From NCBI GenBank assembly GCA_002169365.1, contig NHLE01000039.1:1-7035 (forward strand): DNA of 7,035 nucleotides, read 5' to 3'. This stretch comes from Pelagibacteraceae bacterium TMED259 (GTDB taxonomy: Bacteria; Pseudomonadota; Alphaproteobacteria; HIMB59). The position numbers were made by a program, and so were the translations under genes. Below are positions 1-6,969 of the stretch, in pieces (positions within the stretch are counted from its first letter, which is position 1; every line of letters starts with the position of its first letter). Under the pieces are notes generated by a model. It had not been told where the DNA came from and did no database searches. It was given only the letters and a program-made list of their open reading frames with translations.

Positions 1-2
1 CT

Positions 3-320
3 ATTTTATTTTTAAAAAATACGGCTTTACAAGAGAATACTATTGGGCAGGATTTTGAGTTAAAACAAGAACAACGTTTTTTAGTTATATCGGGGCCTAA
101 TGCTGGTGGAAAATCGATAACTCTTAAGACAATAGGATTACTTCAATTGATGTTTCAAAGTGGTTTAATGGTTTCGGTTAATGATGTAAGTGAGTTTTGT
201 TGGTTCGATACGATTCTTTCTGATATTGGTGATAATCAGTCCATTGAAAATCAATTGAGTACCTACAGTTATAGATTAGCTAGGATGGAGTTGTTTTTAA
301 ATAAGGTTAATGGAACCAAT
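3..320 (+). CDS. mutS2: MutS2-type ATPase, internal fragment (broken at both ends)
   Basis: The frame is open from the left edge. It encodes the ATPase core of MutS2, a MutS-superfamily protein that in various bacteria suppresses recombination or acts on stalled ribosomes. The P-loop GPNAGGKS lies at 93-116 and is followed by TLKTIGLLQLM. Next come DIGDNQSIENQLSTYS and YRLARM, the MutS2 signature; MutS1 has GPNMAGKST and a different sensor region. The IENQLSTYSYRL form matches my recollection of Bacteroidetes/Flavobacteriia proteins, and MutS2 is uncommon in Alphaproteobacteria. The N-terminal part is off the window. The match stops just before the Walker B strand (expected LFLIDEFGTGSDP), where the frame becomes CrcB-like. 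The lost Walker B and Smr regions mean it cannot be a working ATPase as written. The right boundary is approximate (about 312-333). The family call is firm; the donor taxon is inferred. Confidence 0.85.
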
Positions 321-506
321 TATATTTTTTTATACATTGGCTTGCTTGGCAGTTTTACTACTTTATCATCATTTAATATTGATATGTTCAATCTTCTAAG
401 CGATAGGCTATTCATAAAAGCTTTTATTTTCTTCTTACTTAATATCGTATTATCTTTCATTTTCTTTTATTTATTCTATCTGATAAGTATAAAGCTTGAA
501 AATTAA
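321..506 (+). CDS. crcB: CrcB/Fluc fluoride channel, C-terminal half only
   Basis: About 61 residues read in frame from the MutS2 fragment and look like the second half of CrcB (Fluc), the small inner-membrane fluoride exporter that works as a dual-topology dimer. The segment GLLGSFTTLSSF (about 339-374) matches the conserved CrcB motif usually written GxxGGFTTFSTF, which carries fluoride-coordinating residues. A second hydrophobic helix (KAFIFFLLNIVLSFIFFYLF) follows, with a short polar tail. A full CrcB is about 125 residues with four helices; the first two helices and the start codon are missing here. No credible internal start precedes the motif. The gene ends at 504-506, overlapping the next gene by 11 bases. 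I recall crcB next to an rluC-like gene in Alphaproteobacteria, which supports this half being native to the rest of the window and the MutS2 part being foreign. Confidence 0.75.
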   Translation, partial: YIFLYIGLLGSFTTLSSFNIDMFNLLSDRLFIKAFIFFLLNIVLSFIFFYLFYLISIKLEN

Positions 507-1308
507 AATCGACAAAGACTACAATAGATTAGATAAATTTATATATCAGTACTTAGAGAATGTTCCTCTATCTTTAATTCAAAGATTAATCAGAAAATAT
601 AAGATTAAGATCAATAATAAGAAATCCAAAGCCAATTCACCTTTAATAAATGGTGACTTAATTTATATATATTATGATTTTGATAATAGGACTGATAAGT
701 CTTTTAATATCAATTTATCAAATGAAGATAGAAAAAAATTTGATAGTCATATTATTTTTCAAAATAGTGACTTTTTAATTATCAATAAGATTAGAGGATT
801 TGCTGTACAAAGGGGATCCAAGGTAAAAATTTCATTGAAAGATTTTTACGAGTCTTTAATGAAACAAAGTTTATATATTGTGCATAGGCTTGATAAAGAT
901 ACATCTGGATTGATGATATTTGCTAAAAATAGACTTGCCGCATCTAATATTTCTAAGTTATTTCAAGATAATCAAATTCATAAATATTATATTGCAATTA
1001 CCAATAAAGCTTTTAAAAAACCTTCAGGCATATTATCTAATGAGAATAATGAAAAAAAGATCTTGAAGTCACAATATCGAAGAATACGTATAGCAAATTA
1101 TGAATTTGCATATTTAGTAAAATTAATAACAGGTCGAAAGCATCAAATAAGACTTCAATTTTATTTAAATAATAATCCTATTCTAGGTGATAAAAAATTT
1201 TCTGAACAAAATGATGGTAATTTAATGTTGAAATCAACATCTTTGTCATTTTTTTATCAAGATAAATTTTATAAATTTAAATTAGATTTAAATCAAATTT
1301 TTGAATAA
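496..1308 (+). CDS. rluC: RluA-family 23S rRNA pseudouridine synthase (RluC/RluD-like)
   Basis: This enzyme converts specific uridines in RNA to pseudouridine; the RluC/RluD branch acts on large-subunit rRNA in the cytoplasm. The 270 residues begin with an S4-type RNA-binding region (about 11-60, including SLIQRLIRKYKIKINNKKSKA). The catalytic core follows: HRLDKDTSG at 130-138 with the expected nucleophile Asp133, and GRKHQIRLQ at 213-221. It is shorter than the usual 300-330 residues, mainly through a trimmed C-terminus and linkers. A stop at 490-492 lies in frame upstream, so the TTG at 496 is the first usable start and places the S4 domain correctly. No clear Shine-Dalgarno sequence is seen. 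It overlaps the crcB remnant by 11 bases and converges on lipB with a 32-base overlap. The RluC subfamily rather than RluD is suggested mainly by the crcB neighbour, so the exact target uridines are uncertain. Confidence 0.88.
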   Translation: MKIKIDKDYNRLDKFIYQYLENVPLSLIQRLIRKYKIKINNKKSKANSPLINGDLIYIYYDFDNRTDKSFNINLSNEDRKKFDSHIIFQNSDFLIINKIRGFAVQRGSKVKISLKDFYESLMKQSLYIVHRLDKDTSGLMIFAKNRLAASNISKLFQDNQIHKYYIAITNKAFKKPSGILSNENNEKKILKSQYRRIRIANYEFAYLVKLITGRKHQIRLQFYLNNNPILGDKKFSEQNDGNLMLKSTSLSFFYQDKFYKFKLDLNQIFE

Positions 1309-1915
1309 ATCTTTCTTTTAATTCTTTTATGATTTTATCTTTATCATAATTAATTCCTAATTCTTCCAGACTACTTATTTCTCTTCCATCAAGCCCACAA
1401 GGGTTTATTTTTCTAAATTTTTCTAAATCATTATGAAAGTTAATTGAAAGTCCATGATAGATCACTCCTCTTGAATATCTTAAACCTATAAATATTATTT
1501 TTCGTGAACCTTTTGCACCCTTAACCCATAGTCCTCTATTTTTCTCTTTTTTTCTTATTAGTTCAATTTGATTATTATTGAATACGCCGATACATATATC
1601 TTCAATAACATTTATGTAATCAATGATATTCATATTTCGAGCCTTAATGTTAATTAATGGATAAATTATTAATTGTCCTGGTCCATGATAGGTAATTTTT
1701 CCACCTCTATTAACTTTATGAACTTCTATATTATTTATTTTTTCTTCATTGAATTCTTTAGGTGTTGAGCTGCCAGCAGTAAAAACCTCTTTATGTTCTA
1801 AAAACCAAATTTCTTCGTATTTAATATTTTCAGATACTTTTTTGACTGTTTTTTCCATCTTATCTAATATTTCAGAATAGTTTACATAACCTTTTAATTG
1901 TTTTATTTTTGACAT
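1277..1915 (-). CDS. lipB: Octanoyl-ACP:protein N-octanoyltransferase LipB
   Basis: LipB moves the octanoyl group from octanoyl-acyl carrier protein to lipoyl domains of 2-oxoacid dehydrogenases and the glycine cleavage H protein. LipA then inserts sulfur. The 212 residues carry the family motifs in order: RGGKITYHGPGQ at 70-81, GSRKIIFIGLRYSRG at 136-150 with the putative catalytic Lys139, YHGLSINF at 153-160, and INPCGLDGREISSL at 170-183 with the catalytic Cys173. Length is normal for LipB. The start is ATG at 1915-1913, giving a short N-terminus (MSKIKQLKGYVNYSEIL) that fits the family. It is transcribed away from tRNA-Leu, leaving 28 bases between them. Its 3' end overlaps the rluC-like gene antisense by 32 bases. 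lipA is not in the window. Confidence 0.95.
   Translation of the reverse strand: MSKIKQLKGYVNYSEILDKMEKTVKKVSENIKYEEIWFLEHKEVFTAGSSTPKEFNEEKINNIEVHKVNRGGKITYHGPGQLIIYPLINIKARNMNIIDYINVIEDICIGVFNNNQIELIRKKEKNRGLWVKGAKGSRKIIFIGLRYSRGVIYHGLSINFHNDLEKFRKINPCGLDGREISSLEELGINYDKDKIIKELKERFIQKFDLNLI
1284..1320 (+). terminator. Weak hairpin plus T-rich tract at the rluC-like/lipB convergence
   Basis: AGATTTA (1284-1290) can pair with TAAATCT (1306-1312), with an inner TCAA/TTGA pairing, and the T-rich TTCTTTTA follows. It spans the rluC-like stop codon and lies in the 32-base overlap with lipB. The stem is A-T rich and therefore weak, so it is a candidate terminator only. Confidence 0.3.
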
Positions 1916-1943
1916 CAGCTATTAATTATTAACCTTATTATTT

Positions 1944-2031
1944 GCGGACGTGGCGGAACTGGTAGACGCGCAGCGTTGAGGTCGCTGTGGGATATAATCC
2001 TGTGGAAGTTCGAGTCTTCTCGTCCGCACCA
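1944..2031 (+). tRNA. tRNA-Leu (anticodon GAG), CCA encoded
   Basis: All arms can be folded by eye. The 7-bp acceptor is GCGGACG with CGTCCGC, followed by discriminator A and an encoded CCA (2029-2031). The D arm has a GCG/CGC stem around GAACTGGTAGA. The anticodon stem CAGCG/CGCTG encloses the loop TTGAGGT, placing anticodon GAG at 1978-1980. A long variable arm (TGGGATATAATCCTGT) marks a type II tRNA. The T arm GGAAG/CTTCT encloses TTCGAGT. The total of 88 nt is normal for tRNA-Leu. GAG reads the leucine codons CUC and CUU. The gene lies head to head with lipB (28 bases apart), and mgtE starts only 8 bases after the CCA, so one primary transcript probably covers both. Confidence 0.97.
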
Positions 2032-2039
2032 GATTTAAA

Positions 2040-3338
2040 ATGACAAAACTAAATAAAAAAATATTCATTGAATCTATCAAAGGTTTTCATCCAGCTGATC
2101 AAGCCGATAAGTTAGAGAGTTTACCTACAAATGATCAATCCTCAATACTTAAAACTCATACAAAATACTTTCATCCACATTTTATAGCTTATCTAAGAGA
2201 GGAAACTAGAGATCTAACACTTGAAATGATACCTAATAAGCATCTCGTAAGGTTAATACAGTATTTAGATTTAGATGATGCCGTTGAAATTTTAAGTGAT
2301 TTTGAGACGCACGAATTAGTAAAAATTTTATCAAAACTAGGTTCACAGCAACGTGAAAGAATTGAAGAAAGTTTAAAATATGATGAAAATTCTGCTGGTA
2401 GATTAATGAATCGAGATTATCTTGCTGTTAAATCTGATATCACTGTAGGTGGTCTAATTGATAATTTAAGAAAATCTAGAAGGGGGCCTAAGGACTTTTA
2501 CAATGTATTTATTGTCGATAATAACAATACCCCAATTGGTTTTATCCCCTCTGGAAGAATATTGAGATCAAATAGATCTAGAAAGTTAAAAGACTTAATC
2601 TTTAAAAATATTCATCTTATAAGGCATGACAATACTATTGAAGATATTGCCTATGCCTTTAGACAATATGGTCTTGTTTCTGCTCCTGTTGTTAACAATG
2701 AGAATAAAATGATTGGTATAATGACTGTAGATGATGTTGTTGAGATTGACCACGAGGAATCCGAAGACGATATGAGAAAACTTGGTGGTTTATTTGTTAA
2801 TGATTTTTATAAAGGCGCTATAAATTCCGCCTACTCAAGATTCATTTGGCTGGGTTTAAATTTACTAACTGCTATTTTAGCTTCTTATGTAATTGATATT
2901 TACGCAGATAAACTTCAGCAAATGATAGCAATTGCTGTACTGATGCCTATCGTAGCTTCAATGGGAGGTAATGCTGGTACTCAAGCAATGACTATATATG
3001 TTAGGGCTATTGCTACTAAAGATATTAATAAATCAAATTATATGAGTCTTGTTATGAAAGAGTTTCTCATAGGATCATTAAATGGAATGGCTCTTTCATT
3101 AATCATGGGTTTGATTACATATTTTTGGTTTGATAACATAAATCTTGCTATAGCTATATCTGTTGCGATATTAGTGAACCTTGGTTTTGCTTGTTTAGTA
3201 GGTATTATCATTCCAGTTACTATTAATAAATTAAAAATAGATCCCGCTTTAGCTTCAGGTATTGTCTTAACAACATTTACCGATGTATTTGGCTTCTTAT
3301 CTTTTCTTTCAATTGCTACATATATATTAAACCTATGA
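2040..3338 (+). CDS. mgtE: MgtE-family magnesium transporter/channel
   Basis: MgtE is a homodimeric inner-membrane Mg2+ channel gated by its cytoplasmic magnesium-sensing domains. The 432 residues show the full layout. An N-domain (about 14-115, beginning FHPADQADKLESL) is followed by the ENSAGRLMNRDYLAV junction (116-130) and two CBS repeats (about 125-235). An acidic plug-helix region, DHEESEDDMRKLGG, spans 237-250, and five membrane helices occupy about 265-430. Pore signatures are GGNAGTQ at 309-315 and TTFTDVFGF at 411-419, where Asp415 matches the ion-binding aspartate of the family. The ATG is 8 bases after the tRNA CCA with no Shine-Dalgarno sequence; RNA 3' processing of the tRNA would leave an almost leaderless message. 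Its stop overlaps the next gene's start in ATGA, suggesting translational coupling. The protein looks complete and functional. Confidence 0.95.
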   Translation: MTKLNKKIFIESIKGFHPADQADKLESLPTNDQSSILKTHTKYFHPHFIAYLREETRDLTLEMIPNKHLVRLIQYLDLDDAVEILSDFETHELVKILSKLGSQQRERIEESLKYDENSAGRLMNRDYLAVKSDITVGGLIDNLRKSRRGPKDFYNVFIVDNNNTPIGFIPSGRILRSNRSRKLKDLIFKNIHLIRHDNTIEDIAYAFRQYGLVSAPVVNNENKMIGIMTVDDVVEIDHEESEDDMRKLGGLFVNDFYKGAINSAYSRFIWLGLNLLTAILASYVIDIYADKLQQMIAIAVLMPIVASMGGNAGTQAMTIYVRAIATKDINKSNYMSLVMKEFLIGSLNGMALSLIMGLITYFWFDNINLAIAISVAILVNLGFACLVGIIIPVTINKLKIDPALASGIVLTTFTDVFGFLSFLSIATYILNL

Positions 3339-4726
3339 TTAATCCTGAAATTTTAAGAGAGTACGACATTAGGGGTATTTATGAAAAATCTTTAACCCTT
3401 AACGATGTTACTAAGATAGCTTTAAGTATCACAAAAATATTAATAAATAATAAATCACCAAATATAATTATAGGGCATGATGGAAGGGTATCCTCTTTAA
3501 AGATAAAAAATACATTAATTGAAAATTTTACTACATATGGCATAGAAGTAATTGATATTTCATTAATACCAACACCATTAAGTTATTTTTCAAGTAAATG
3601 TTATAAAATCCCTAACTTAATTATGATTACGGGATCTCATAATCCAAAAGAATATAATGGATTAAAAATGATTATTGATAATAAGCCCTTTTTTGGAAAA
3701 TCTATTAAATCCTTAAATGAAGTAGATGTATCTTCTTTGATTAAAAAGAACGGATCAGTAAAATTTCAAAATCCATTAATTCGTTATCAAAATGAAATTC
3801 TTAATAGGTTTAGCAACATTAATAAATTAAAGATTGTTTGGGATCCCGGTAATGGCGCTATTGGTGCTATTATTAATAAAATTACTAATACGATAGGAGG
3901 GACCAATATCATACTAAATCAATCTATAGATGGGACATTTCCTAATCATCATCCTGATCCAACTGTAAAATCTAATATTATTGAAATATCTGATTTTATA
4001 AAAAAAAATTCTTTTGATCTTGGTGTTGCTTTTGATGGAGATGGAGATCGCGTTGGAATAATTGATAACAAGGGAAATCTCGTATATTCAGATATGATTT
4101 TTTTACTACTCGCTTTAGACTTACAAAAAGAAAAAAAAGACATAACCGCAGTTGCAGATGTAAAATGTAGTAAGATTTTATTTGATGTCCTCAAAGAAAA
4201 TGGAATTAGAATATTAATGTCTAAAACAGGTCACTCTTTAATTAAACAGATGATAGTTGCTGAAAACGCAGATATAGCAGGTGAAATGAGTGGACATATT
4301 TTTTATAATCATGGTTACTATGGCTATGATGATGCAATTTATGCTTCATTAAAATTTATAAATATTTTAAATAGCTCAAATAATTCGCTGAGTGACATAC
4401 TAGAGCCTTATATGCAATCGTCATCTAGCCCAGAGATAAAGCTATATTGCAAGGAGTCTGAGAAATTTGACCTCCTGTCTAATATTATATCCGATTTAAA
4501 AGTCATCTATAATGATGCTTATTTAAATGAAATTGATGGAATTAGAGTTGAATCATCTAATTTTTGGTTTTTAATAAGAGCATCAAATACTCAAAATTGT
4601 TTAGTTTTTAGATTAGAACATTTCCAAAATGAATTATTCAAACCTGAAATTCAAAAAATAATCACTATTTTTAAAAAATTTAACTTAGACTTAAAAGAGC
4701 TAGATAGTTTTTACAAGGCAATCTAG
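3335..4726 (+). CDS. manB: Phosphomannomutase/phosphoglucomutase (alpha-D-phosphohexomutase family)
   Basis: The enzyme interconverts hexose-6-phosphates and hexose-1-phosphates (mannose and/or glucose), supplying sugar nucleotides for LPS, capsule or glycan synthesis in the cytoplasm. All four active-site loops are present in 463 residues. DIRG lies at 11-14 and TGSHNP at 99-104, with Ser101 as the phosphoserine. The metal loop DGDGDR is at 234-239 and the sugar-specificity loop GEMSGH at 316-321. The phosphate-binding loop RASNT is at 415-419. GEMSGH is typical of the dual-specificity PMM/PGM (AlgC, ManB/CpsG) group rather than GlmM. The ATG overlaps the mgtE stop by 4 bases. Its stop codon lies inside a hairpin followed by a T-tract, and its last 27 bases are antisense to the end of the carboxypeptidase gene. 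Substrate preference cannot be read from sequence, so the gene symbol is tentative. Confidence 0.92.
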   Translation: MINPEILREYDIRGIYEKSLTLNDVTKIALSITKILINNKSPNIIIGHDGRVSSLKIKNTLIENFTTYGIEVIDISLIPTPLSYFSSKCYKIPNLIMITGSHNPKEYNGLKMIIDNKPFFGKSIKSLNEVDVSSLIKKNGSVKFQNPLIRYQNEILNRFSNINKLKIVWDPGNGAIGAIINKITNTIGGTNIILNQSIDGTFPNHHPDPTVKSNIIEISDFIKKNSFDLGVAFDGDGDRVGIIDNKGNLVYSDMIFLLLALDLQKEKKDITAVADVKCSKILFDVLKENGIRILMSKTGHSLIKQMIVAENADIAGEMSGHIFYNHGYYGYDDAIYASLKFINILNSSNNSLSDILEPYMQSSSSPEIKLYCKESEKFDLLSNIISDLKVIYNDAYLNEIDGIRVESSNFWFLIRASNTQNCLVFRLEHFQNELFKPEIQKIITIFKKFNLDLKELDSFYKAI

Positions 4727-4738
4727 CTTATTTTTTTT
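4697..4738 (+). terminator. Intrinsic terminator-like hairpin carrying both convergent stop codons
   Basis: The arms GAGCTAGAT (4697-4705) and ATCTAGCTT (4721-4729) pair over 9 bp, including one G-T pair, around a 15-nt loop. They are followed by A and eight T residues (4731-4738). This is the arrangement of a Rho-independent terminator for the plus-strand mgtE-phosphohexomutase transcript, although the loop is long and the stem only moderately G+C rich. The phosphohexomutase stop TAG (4724-4726) lies in the right arm, and the carboxypeptidase stop (4702-4700, minus strand) in the left arm. The minus-strand side is followed by TCTTTTAAG, a weaker T-tract, so minus-strand termination is possible but less convincing. 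Confidence 0.55.
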
Positions 4739-5785
4739 AATTTCATCGCAAATGAAATTAGCAACTCTCACATCATCAAATTTTATATAGGTAGTAAAAT
4801 ATTTACCTTTTTTCGTAATATCATGATCATATTCTTGTAAAAAATTTAATTTATTCTTTAATAAAGAAATATGTTTTTTAGATAAACTTATTTTCTTAAA
4901 AGAAGAGGTTTGAACTAAATATACTTTTTTTAAATCTGTTTTTTTGGATGACTCTATGATTACTTTTGTTTCAGGTTTAGTAAAATATTTATCCATAAGA
5001 TAATTGATTTTATTATTTCTTTCATTTGCCGAGTTACCTCCAAAATAAATACCCAGTAGATATTGATCATTGCTCTCTCTTAATAATGAAATTTGAAAAC
5101 CTGACTTTCTTATATAGCCAGTCTTTAATCCAATATAATGATCATATTTTTTTAATAACTTATTGTGGGTCTTATATGTTTTGTTTTTAATCTTAGTTCT
5201 AGTTTTTTTAAATCTATGTAAGTATTGAGGGTAGTCATTTATTATTTTAGAACTTAATATAAACATATCTAAGGCGCTTGATAGATTTGCTTTATTGGGC
5301 AAACCATGAGGATTAGCAAAATTTGTATTTTTTAATCCCATAATCGATGAATATTTGTTCATTTTTTTAATAAATTTTTTCTCTGATCCTTCAATTTTTT
5401 CAGCAACAGCTACAGCTATATCATTCGCAGATTTTACTATTAAAGCATCTATTGCTTTATCAACTGTTATTTTACTCCCTACGCCTAATCCTAATTTTGA
5501 TGGTTGTTGATTGTTTGCATATTTTGATATGGTAATCTCATCATCTAAGTTTAGGTTGCCTATTCTTATTTCTTCAAAAATTATATACAACGTCATTATT
5601 TTAGTAAGTGAGGCAGGATAATTCTTAGTATCTTGATTGATCTGAAAATAAATTTCACCTGAAACTGGATCTCCTATTACACTAGCAATCTTTGCATGCA
5701 GTGGATGTGCTAAATTGGCTATAATGATTGTAAATATTAATATTACAATATGCGTAGTTTTCTTATAATATTTGGTAAATGTCAC
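4700..5785 (-). CDS. dacC: D-alanyl-D-alanine carboxypeptidase (PBP5/6, S11 family) with SPOR-like C-terminal domain
   Basis: This periplasmic penicillin-binding protein trims the terminal D-Ala from peptidoglycan pentapeptides. The 361 residues start with a basic stretch and a hydrophobic signal segment (about 12-31, likely cut after LHA). The serine-peptidase core has SLTK at 59-62 (Ser59 nucleophile, Lys62), SAND at 119-122 and KTG at 221-223. Instead of the usual PBP5 C-terminal beta domain and amphipathic anchor, residues about 285-361 (from KKVYLVQTSSFKK to LDCLVKTI) resemble a SPOR domain, which binds denuded septal glycan. That architecture is known in Alphaproteobacteria. The SPOR call is weaker than the enzyme call. 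Start: GTG at 5785-5783, since a stop follows 9 bases upstream and no other ATG or GTG precedes the signal segment. It overlaps the NDUFA12 start head to head by 7 bases and the phosphohexomutase 3' end by 27. Confidence 0.9.
   Translation of the reverse strand: MTFTKYYKKTTHIVILIFTIIIANLAHPLHAKIASVIGDPVSGEIYFQINQDTKNYPASLTKIMTLYIIFEEIRIGNLNLDDEITISKYANNQQPSKLGLGVGSKITVDKAIDALIVKSANDIAVAVAEKIEGSEKKFIKKMNKYSSIMGLKNTNFANPHGLPNKANLSSALDMFILSSKIINDYPQYLHRFKKTRTKIKNKTYKTHNKLLKKYDHYIGLKTGYIRKSGFQISLLRESNDQYLLGIYFGGNSANERNNKINYLMDKYFTKPETKVIIESSKKTDLKKVYLVQTSSFKKISLSKKHISLLKNKLNFLQEYDHDITKKGKYFTTYIKFDDVRVANFICDEIKKNKLDCLVKTI
5742..5769 (+). promoter_or_regulatory. Possible sigma-70 promoter for the NDUFA12-MCE run
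   Basis: A perfect TATAAT lies at 5764-5769, with ATTACA (4 of 6 matches to TTGACA) at 5742-5747 and a 16-base spacer. Transcription would begin near 5776, about three bases before the NDUFA12 ATG, giving a nearly leaderless message. The site lies inside the signal-peptide codons of the divergent carboxypeptidase gene, and no intergenic space exists for a promoter elsewhere. TATAAT arises easily by chance in such AT-rich DNA, so this is only a candidate. Confidence 0.3.
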
Positions 5786-6087
5786 TTGGTTTTAAAATAT
5801 ATTCTTTCCTTAATGGTAAACTTGTTCATCAAGATTCGCTAGGTAATAAGTTTTATCATGATAAATCAAATTTAAATAAAAGGTGGGTTGTATATGCATC
5901 AAACTTAGGGCCCGAGTCTTTGCCAACTGATTATCATAATTGGTTACATGGAACGTCAGATATAATGTTAAATACAAAGATATCCCATGATGATTTATTA
6001 AATAATATAAAACAAAGAACACAAAAACATATAACTAGTCATAAAAAAAAATTAGACAAAGGTTACCAAAGTTGGCAGCCAAAATAA
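5779..6087 (+). CDS. NADH:ubiquinone oxidoreductase NDUFA12-family subunit (B17.2-like)
   Basis: NDUFA12 is an accessory subunit of respiratory complex I, shared by mitochondria and Alphaproteobacteria, at the junction of the peripheral arm. The 102 residues show the family pattern. An N-terminal FLNGKLVHQDSLGNKFY segment (10-26) is followed by RWVVY at 35-39, a SLPTDYHNWLHGTSD region (48-61) and a C-terminal YQSWQPK (96-102). The length is typical of bacterial versions (about 100-140). The ATG fits the family's short N-terminus (MSLG...) and is preferred even though it overlaps the divergent carboxypeptidase start by 7 bases. Its 3' end overlaps the next gene by 16 bases. The family is a strong marker for an alphaproteobacterial host. 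The nuo genes themselves are not in the window. Confidence 0.9.
   Translation: MSLGFKIYSFLNGKLVHQDSLGNKFYHDKSNLNKRWVVYASNLGPESLPTDYHNWLHGTSDIMLNTKISHDDLLNNIKQRTQKHITSHKKKLDKGYQSWQPK
6058..6062 (+). promoter_or_regulatory. Shine-Dalgarno-like AAAGG supporting a TTG start
   Basis: AAAGG ends 9 bases before the TTG at 6072 and lies inside the NDUFA12 coding sequence. Most starts in this window lack any such motif, so its presence here supports TTG as the start of the first MCE gene. Confidence 0.45.
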
Positions 6088-6533
6088 TATTTGAGATTGA
6101 CTCGTACCCTCAGTCTTTACATTTTAAAAATGGCCTTTTTTTTATTTTAATTCTATTTATTATAATACTCTCTTATCAATCTTCTGGAAATTTCAATAAA
6201 AAAGTTTTTTTCGAATCAATTTTTACTTATGCTGAGGGCTTATCTATTGGTTCTGATGTAGAGATGTCAGGTTTGAAAATAGGAGAGGTCGATAATATTA
6301 CTTTAAATCAAAATAATGATGTTTATGTGAGTGGTTTTGTTAACTCTGATATAGATATTCCCGATGATAGTATTTTATTAATTAGATCTAATGGAATATT
6401 TGGAAAGAAATCTTTATTGATAGAACCTGGTTTTGGGGACACTCTAAATAAAGATAATTATTTTTTTACACAAACCAAAGATTCTTATTCTATAGATATG
6501 CTATTAAGATACCTTGGTGCTTTAAATGACTAA
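6072..6533 (+). CDS. MCE/MlaD-like membrane-anchored lipid-binding protein, first of a tandem pair
   Basis: MlaD-type proteins form hexameric rings in the periplasm that, anchored beside an MlaFE ABC transporter, carry phospholipids between the inner and outer membranes. The 153 residues have a short cytoplasmic N-terminus, one membrane helix (about 21-37, GLFFILILFIIILSY) and one MCE domain (about 46-120). Recognisable MCE elements are EGLSIGSDVEMSGLKIGEV, IPDDSILLIRSNGIFG and SLLIEPG. The C-terminal tail (YSIDMLLRYLGAL) may pack in the ring. TTG at 6072 is the start chosen because of the AAAGG before it and because it leaves a short leader before the helix. It overlaps NDUFA12 by 16 bases and the next MCE gene by 8, so translation is probably coupled. 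It lacks the usual N-x-x-E-x-x-x-G opening seen in its downstream partner. Confidence 0.82.
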   Translation: MAAKIIFEIDSYPQSLHFKNGLFFILILFIIILSYQSSGNFNKKVFFESIFTYAEGLSIGSDVEMSGLKIGEVDNITLNQNNDVYVSGFVNSDIDIPDDSILLIRSNGIFGKKSLLIEPGFGDTLNKDNYFFTQTKDSYSIDMLLRYLGALND

Positions 6534-6969
6534 AAATTTTAATTTTGAATATATTTTAGGCCTTATAATTTTATTTTTAAGCATTTTTTCTTTAATATAC
6601 GTTTTATCAAAAGTTGATTTATTTCAACATTCTAAGAATAATTTAACCCTAGAATCCAGTTTTTTTGACATTGGTGCTTTAAGTGTCGGCGCAGATGTAA
6701 AAGTTCGTGGTGTTAAAGTAGGGGAGATTGTAAGTATATCGCTTGATAGTAATACTTATTTAGCTTTAGTTACCACATCCTATGAGAATAATATCTTAAT
6801 TCCTAAAGACTCTATTTTTAAAATAGCTGAGAGTGGCTTTACGGCTCCCCCTTATATTGAAATAGAATTAGGAGCTAGCAAAGAATTTTTTATAGATAAG
6901 GATAGTACAAAGAATAATGTTGATGCGATTTCTCTTGAAGAAATTATTAATAATTTTATTTTTAATTAA
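6526..6969 (+). CDS. mlaD: MCE/MlaD-like lipid-transport protein, second of the tandem pair
   Basis: This is a second short MlaD-like protein of 147 residues. An N-terminal NFEYILGLIILFL opening agrees with the NxxExxxG start common in MlaD and leads into a membrane helix at about 9-28. One MCE domain follows (about 41-116: FDIGALSVGADVKVRGVKVGEI, IPKDSIFKIAESGF, YIEIELG). The tail ISLEEIINNFIF resembles the acidic-hydrophobic C-terminus of alphaproteobacterial MlaD. It looks more canonical than its upstream neighbour, except that the turn usually written GLLGxxY reads GFTAPPY (104-110). The ATG overlaps the previous gene by 8 bases with no clear Shine-Dalgarno sequence. Its 3' end is overlapped by 47 bases by the next gene. 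mlaE, mlaF and mlaC are not in the window. Confidence 0.85.
   Translation: MTKNFNFEYILGLIILFLSIFSLIYVLSKVDLFQHSKNNLTLESSFFDIGALSVGADVKVRGVKVGEIVSISLDSNTYLALVTTSYENNILIPKDSIFKIAESGFTAPPYIEIELGASKEFFIDKDSTKNNVDAISLEEIINNFIFN

What the first reader, a model, noticed from the sequence alone, without database searches (positions are those of the whole stretch)
3..506. In-frame chimera: Bacteroidetes-type MutS2 core joined to the C-terminal half of CrcB
One open frame reads as MutS2 (P-loop GPNAGGKS, then IENQLSTYSYRL) up to about residue GTN at 312-320, and from about 330 as CrcB (GLLGSFTTLSSF plus a final helix). The switch falls just where MutS2 should read LFLIDEFG, so the break may sit in a short shared T-rich stretch encoding Phe-Leu. 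Both proteins are truncated at the joint and neither would work. The downstream genes look alphaproteobacterial while the MutS2 piece looks flavobacterial. A metagenome misassembly or amplification chimera is the simplest reading; a real recombination scar or fused pseudogene is the alternative. An annotation of this frame as a normal small membrane protein starting at 147 would be wrong.
Basis: partly seen in the sequence, partly recalled or inferred. Interest (0 to 1): 0.7.

Follow-up and report, generated by a model that had tools for sequence, protein, structure and literature searches.

The report
Artefactual MutS2–CrcB join at contig end
A short piece of a flavobacterium-like DNA-repair gene has been glued in frame onto the back half of an alphaproteobacterium's fluoride-exporter gene, almost certainly by an amplification, library or assembly error, so the apparent fusion protein is not a real gene.

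Summary
ORF 3–506 joins two unrelated proteins: MutS2 (TIGR01069 positions 315–408) and the C-terminal part of CrcB.

In 21 of 21 relatives' loci examined, crcB is complete and sits between rplQ and rluC–lipB, with no mutS2 piece in the fetched stretch. In the host's order 0 of 162 genomes reach the MutS2 cut-off. The MutS2 piece is 62–68% identical to the 20 best MutS2 genes of a flavobacterial order. Of the 120 hits listed (294 found), only the window's own protein spans both parts, while four intact CrcB clusters stand for 133 sequences. The foreign piece is about 290 bases and seems to reach the contig's end (inference).

Best reading: an artefact (amplification or library chimera, or contig-end misassembly). 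A real recombination scar is not excluded without reads, but unlikely. The rest of the window is ordinary.

The parts
3..290 (+). Fragment of a Bacteroidota (Flavobacteriales-like) mutS2 gene, from before the P-loop GPNAGGKS to YRLARM(E); foreign to the rest of the window
   Evidence: TIGR01069 positions 315-408; 62-68% identity in the 20 best matches to MutS2 genes in the order of G002, a genome reached through a locus titled Flavobacteriaceae; no MutS2 over the cut-off in 162 genomes of the host's order
288..314 (+). Interval that contains the joint; bases 291-305 (LFLNK) fit CrcB, and their F-L-x-K also fits MutS2
   Evidence: the exact overlap is not known because neither parent's own DNA was found
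291..506 (+). C-terminal part of crcB (fluoride channel), residues 48-118 plus stop; residues 1-47 missing
   Evidence: PF02537/TIGR00494; 83% protein identity to the crcB of L125; alignment A1
496..1308 (+). RluA/RluC-like pseudouridine synthase gene, host gene, TTG start overlapping the crcB stop
1277..1915 (-). lipB, host gene in conserved order
2040..6969 (.). mgtE, pgmG, D-Ala-D-Ala carboxypeptidase gene (-), NDUFA12 gene, two mlaD-like genes: same order as in relative L001

Best explanation
Not a gene but an artefactual junction. A contig from an AT-rich alphaproteobacterium, which by its relatives should read rplQ-crcB-rluC-lipB, has had everything upstream of crcB codon 48 replaced by about 290 bases of a flavobacterium-like mutS2. 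The likely mechanism (inferred) is a chimeric molecule formed during amplification or library preparation, or a false overlap at the contig's end, at a short sequence shared by the two genes (around 291-305, TTGTTTTTAAATAAG). The in-frame outcome would follow from both genes encoding F-L-x-K there in the same frame. Shown here: two origins, the place of the switch, the intact locus in relatives, and no MutS2 over the cut-off in the order. Inferred: that the contig ends at base 1, and that a laboratory or assembly step made the join.
For: Two unrelated family matches in one frame. CrcB homology starts abruptly at 291. In 21 of 21 loci (L001, L085-L104; 21 of the 34 genomes with a clear CrcB match) a full-length crcB lies between rplQ and rluC-lipB, and no mutS2 fragment is found in the fetched stretch. 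The order has 0 of 162 genomes over the MutS2 cut-off; 17 genomes have 19 weak matches, all within model positions 520-790, none in 315-408. None of the rows listed for 162 genomes spans both parts. The MutS2 part matches in 234 of 395 genomes of the order of G002 (its locus L076 is titled Flavobacteriaceae) at E <= 1e-20; in a phylum-wide draw of 395, 31 genomes match at E <= 1e-34, and 30 of these had already been drawn in that order. The fusion is a single-member cluster, the window's own P0001, while four clusters of intact CrcB stand for 111+3+18+1 sequences (120 of 294 hits seen). The nine host gene pieces tested from 291 to 6966 lie in L001 in the same order, and the mutS2 piece has no match there. 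P0001 starts at the ATT codon at base 3 and its contig has 9041 bases, which suggests that the contig ends there, so that the foreign part is about one read or insert long (inference). Amplification chimeras often join at short complementary stretches: up to 21 nt in PMC1855051 (passages read); overlap peak at 6 nt in PMC4595205 (outline and abstract read).
Against: No reads or coverage could be examined. The donor was not found (best identity 68%), and the same-species intact crcB DNA was not retrieved, so the shared stretch at the joint is not measured. That the contig ends at base 1 is an inference from one database row. Composition does not prove foreignness: third-position GC is 0.26 in the MutS2 part against a host mean of 0.185 (sd 0.038, maximum 0.284 in 255 overlapping windows), but the CrcB part itself is 0.28. 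In PMC1855051 most chimeras were inverted joins within one genome (406 of 475), and for segments over 10 kb apart complementary bases were seen in only 28-35% of cases (passages), so a microhomology join between two molecules is not that paper's commonest kind. Whether the sample was amplified is unknown.
Confidence: 0.94

Rival explanations
1. A real genomic event in one cell lineage: illegitimate, microhomology-mediated recombination put flavobacterial DNA into crcB, leaving a fused pseudogene.
For: The join is in frame and falls in a stretch that both families can encode, which illegitimate recombination also uses; no read data exclude it.
Against: Seen once among the 120 listed hits, against 133 sequences in four clusters of intact CrcB. 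The place upstream of crcB belongs to rplQ in 21 of 21 loci, next to rpoA and ribosomal protein genes in L001, an unlikely place to lose. No genome of 162 in the order reaches the MutS2 cut-off. The foreign piece seems to stop at the contig end (inference).
Confidence: 0.04
2. A functional fusion protein that combines a MutS2 P-loop with the membrane helices of CrcB.
For: The frame is open through both parts.
Against: The MutS2 part stops before the LFLIDEFG region present in relatives, and the CrcB part lacks the first 47 of 118 residues. No second example among the listed hits.
Confidence: 0.005
3. A normal crcB gene starting at TTG 147 (119 codons, nearly the length of a true CrcB, 118).
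For: Length coincidence only.
Against: Frame residues 49-96, the start of that sub-frame, are MutS2 sequence (QLSTYSYRL etc.), not the CrcB N-terminal part.
Confidence: 0.005

Closest known systems
CrcB/Fluc fluoride channel (PF02537, TIGR00494)
   Same: Frame residues 97-167 align with residues 48-118 of intact relatives; local identity 81-99% to the four closest clusters
   Different: First 47 residues absent; MutS2 sequence stands in their place
MutS2 (TIGR01069, PF00488)
   Same: P-loop region to the STYSYRL motif, 62-68% identical to the 20 best matches in flavobacterial genomes
   Different: Only about 95 of more than 700 residues; cut before LFLIDEFG; beside genes of another phylum
Amplification chimeras (multiple displacement amplification), PMC1855051 and PMC4595205
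   Same: Join of two unlinked sequences at what may be a short shared stretch
   Different: Chimeras of PMC1855051 join parts of one genome, mostly inverted (passages); whether this sample was amplified is unknown

Membership tests
MutS2 | P-loop ATPase core with Walker A | tested here: met
   TIGR01069 E 8.2e-38; GPNAGGKS present
MutS2 | Score over the curated cut-off; complete ATPase part including LFLIDEFG | tested here: not met
   130.3 bits against a cut-off of 400; sequence switches before LFLIDEFG
CrcB/Fluc | C-terminal part with G-x-x-GSFTTLSSF | tested here: met
CrcB/Fluc | Full-length small membrane protein including its N-terminal part | tested here: not met
   residues 1-47 missing; 35.4 bits against a cut-off of 80.45
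Artefactual chimera | Two sources that do not co-occur in related genomes | tested here: met
   0 of 162 genomes of the order over the MutS2 cut-off; 21 of 21 loci with intact crcB behind rplQ
Artefactual chimera | Coverage step or no spanning read pairs at the joint | not testable with these tools
   no reads held
Artefactual chimera | Not seen in independent data | tested here: met
   one cluster with one member among the 120 listed of 294 hits; no spanning row in 162 genomes of the order; metagenome contigs were not searched

The most novel reading that the evidence does not exclude
A genuine cross-phylum illegitimate recombination in a single alphaproteobacterial lineage: flavobacterial mutS2 DNA joined into crcB at a short shared sequence, caught before it was lost.
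Probability: 0.04. Interest if true: 0.35.

Novelty: not a real feature. Interest (0 to 1): 0.06.

Why it matters
Only as a warning. The frame already stands in the protein collection as a single-member protein with both Pfam labels (P0001), and its sub-frame from 147 has by chance almost the true length of CrcB. Such joins make false domain fusions and false signs of gene transfer.

Tried and rejected
Whole-genome route for the window itself: none held. Looking in viral contigs for relatives of the intact CrcB, for two strings at the joint and for relatives of the MutS2 piece gave nothing; the phage collection gave no match to window 1-1400. A donor search in the family of G192 covered only 3 genomes, of which only G192 itself matched at E <= 1e-36, at 62%. 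A compositional argument was tried and is weak: the third-position GC of the two parts is similar (0.26 and 0.28), both above the host mean of 0.185. The 80% DNA identity to G117 over window 291-2000 says nothing about where homology begins, because that query itself began at 291; the start is taken. A functional fusion and a normal crcB from 147 were considered and rejected on the alignments. One paper search on chimeric contigs gave a single, viral paper, of which only the listing was seen. The third protein search and structure prediction were not used, since they would not have changed the verdict.

The MutS2 part has Ala at frame residue 93, where 94 of 99 sequences have Lys; the 99 are those of the 239 held proteins other than P0001 (120 of them RluC relatives) that contain the motif sought. 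CrcB does not explain it either (7 of 15 bases in bin 276-290), so it is taken as a peculiarity of the donor.

Full report
What is in the sequence. The window opens inside a frame (3-506, 167 codons, no stop before it). Its first part is MutS2: TIGR01069 mutS2 matches residues 12-105 at E 8.2e-38 (model positions 315-408 of 790), and PF00488 matches residues 28-110. Its second part is CrcB: PF02537 matches residues 105-157 at E 3.9e-08 and TIGR00494 matches residues 103-161. No family listed covers both parts.

Where the switch is. The protein search found 294 proteins and listed 120. Besides the window's own P0001, they include four clusters of intact 118-residue CrcB close to the window (P0020, P0026, P0072, P0113, standing for 111, 3, 18 and 1 sequences). 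Aligned with the frame, they agree closely from frame residue 97, which is CrcB residue 48 (LFLNK...), to the stop; at frame residue 115 the window has Leu where all four have Phe. At the DNA level, the crcB of the closest relative found (L085) matches 12 of 15 bases in 291-305 and 6-15 of 15 in the later bins, but 1-7 of 15 in the five bins of 216-290. MutS2 relatives read mostly YRLK-x-M-x-x-F-L-(K/R)-K-C-N over the same residues. The joint therefore lies in about 288-314, and F-L-x-K of LFLNK fits both families.

What belongs there. A scan of genome contigs with an RluC alignment found one near relative by sequence (L001, titled uncultured Alphaproteobacteria bacterium isolate AG-916-M14, 61% in RluC; the other 79 kept loci are at 37% or less). 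Its frames read rpsM-rpsK-rpoA-rplQ-crcB-rluC-lipB(-)-mgtE-pgmG-carboxypeptidase(-)-NDUFA12-mlaD-mlaD (the names of the four genes before crcB are my reading of the translations). The nine window gene pieces from 291 on match it in the same order at 45-82% identity, and the mutS2 piece has no match there. A nearer relative, G117 (L085/L125), is 80% identical in DNA over window 291-2000 (the query began at 291, so this does not locate the start of homology) and also has rplQ-crcB-rluC-lipB. In 21 of 21 loci from distinct genomes (L001, L085-L104), a full-length crcB lies between rplQ and rluC-lipB, and no mutS2 fragment is present in the fetched stretch at E <= 1e-6. These are the loci handed out for the best CrcB matches, 21 of the 34 genomes with a clear one; L125-L130 repeat six of the same genomes and are not counted.

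Where the MutS2 part comes from. In 162 genomes of the host's order the MutS2 model gives no match over its cut-off. 17 genomes have 19 weak matches, all within model positions 520-790, never the ATPase part seen in the window. Of the 14 control genomes 12 ring, 7 of them over the cut-off. With the whole frame as query, 102 of 162 genomes match: 34 have a clear CrcB match (E below 1e-9) starting at frame residue 94-98; the other rows listed are weak CrcB matches or weak P-loop matches (31-36% identity) in frames of about 610 codons; no row spans both parts. In genomes of the order of G002 (reached through locus L076, titled Flavobacteriaceae) 234 of 395 match the MutS2 part at E <= 1e-20, the 20 best at 62-68% identity in open frames of 721-780 codons. 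In 395 genomes drawn from the phylum, 31 match at E <= 1e-34, 30 of which had already been drawn in the order search. The donor species was not found.

Interpretation. The frame is a chimera of sequences from two phyla. It is a single-member cluster (P0001), whose contig is given as 9041 bases. P0001 begins at the ATT codon at window base 3, which is best explained if the contig ends at window base 1 (inference). The foreign part is then only about 290 bases at a contig end, the size of a read or short insert. A join at a short shared stretch is known from amplification chimeras: PMC1855051 reports priming at complementary stretches of up to 21 nucleotides, though mostly in inverted joins within one genome and less often (28-35%) between segments more than 10 kb apart (passages read); PMC4595205 gives an overlap peak at 6 nucleotides (outline and abstract read). 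A false overlap in assembly would look alike. Which step made the join cannot be told without reads. A true recombination scar is possible, but nothing speaks for it beyond the join itself.

Annotation. Neither part should work as its family does (inference): the MutS2 part ends before LFLIDEFG, and the CrcB part lacks residues 1-47. The sub-frame from TTG 147 has 119 codons, by chance nearly the length of true CrcB (118), so an automatic call there would look credible and be wrong. The rest of the window is ordinary.

Noticed in passing
window 345-347: Leu (ctt) where all four intact CrcB relatives aligned have Phe in GLFGSF; perhaps a sequencing error or variant near the joint.
   Followed up: partly
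window 496-506; L001 6998-7008; L085 1498-1508 (-): rluC starts at TTG inside the end of crcB, an 11-base overlap kept in two relatives.
   Followed up: no
window 6072-6969; L001 12606-13500: Two short MlaD-like genes in tandem with overlapping ends, the first starting at TTG inside the end of the NDUFA12 gene; same arrangement in L001.
   Followed up: no
L001 and L085-L104: Conserved order rplQ-crcB-rluC-lipB, with a fluoride channel gene directly behind rplQ in 21 of 21 loci examined.
   Followed up: partly
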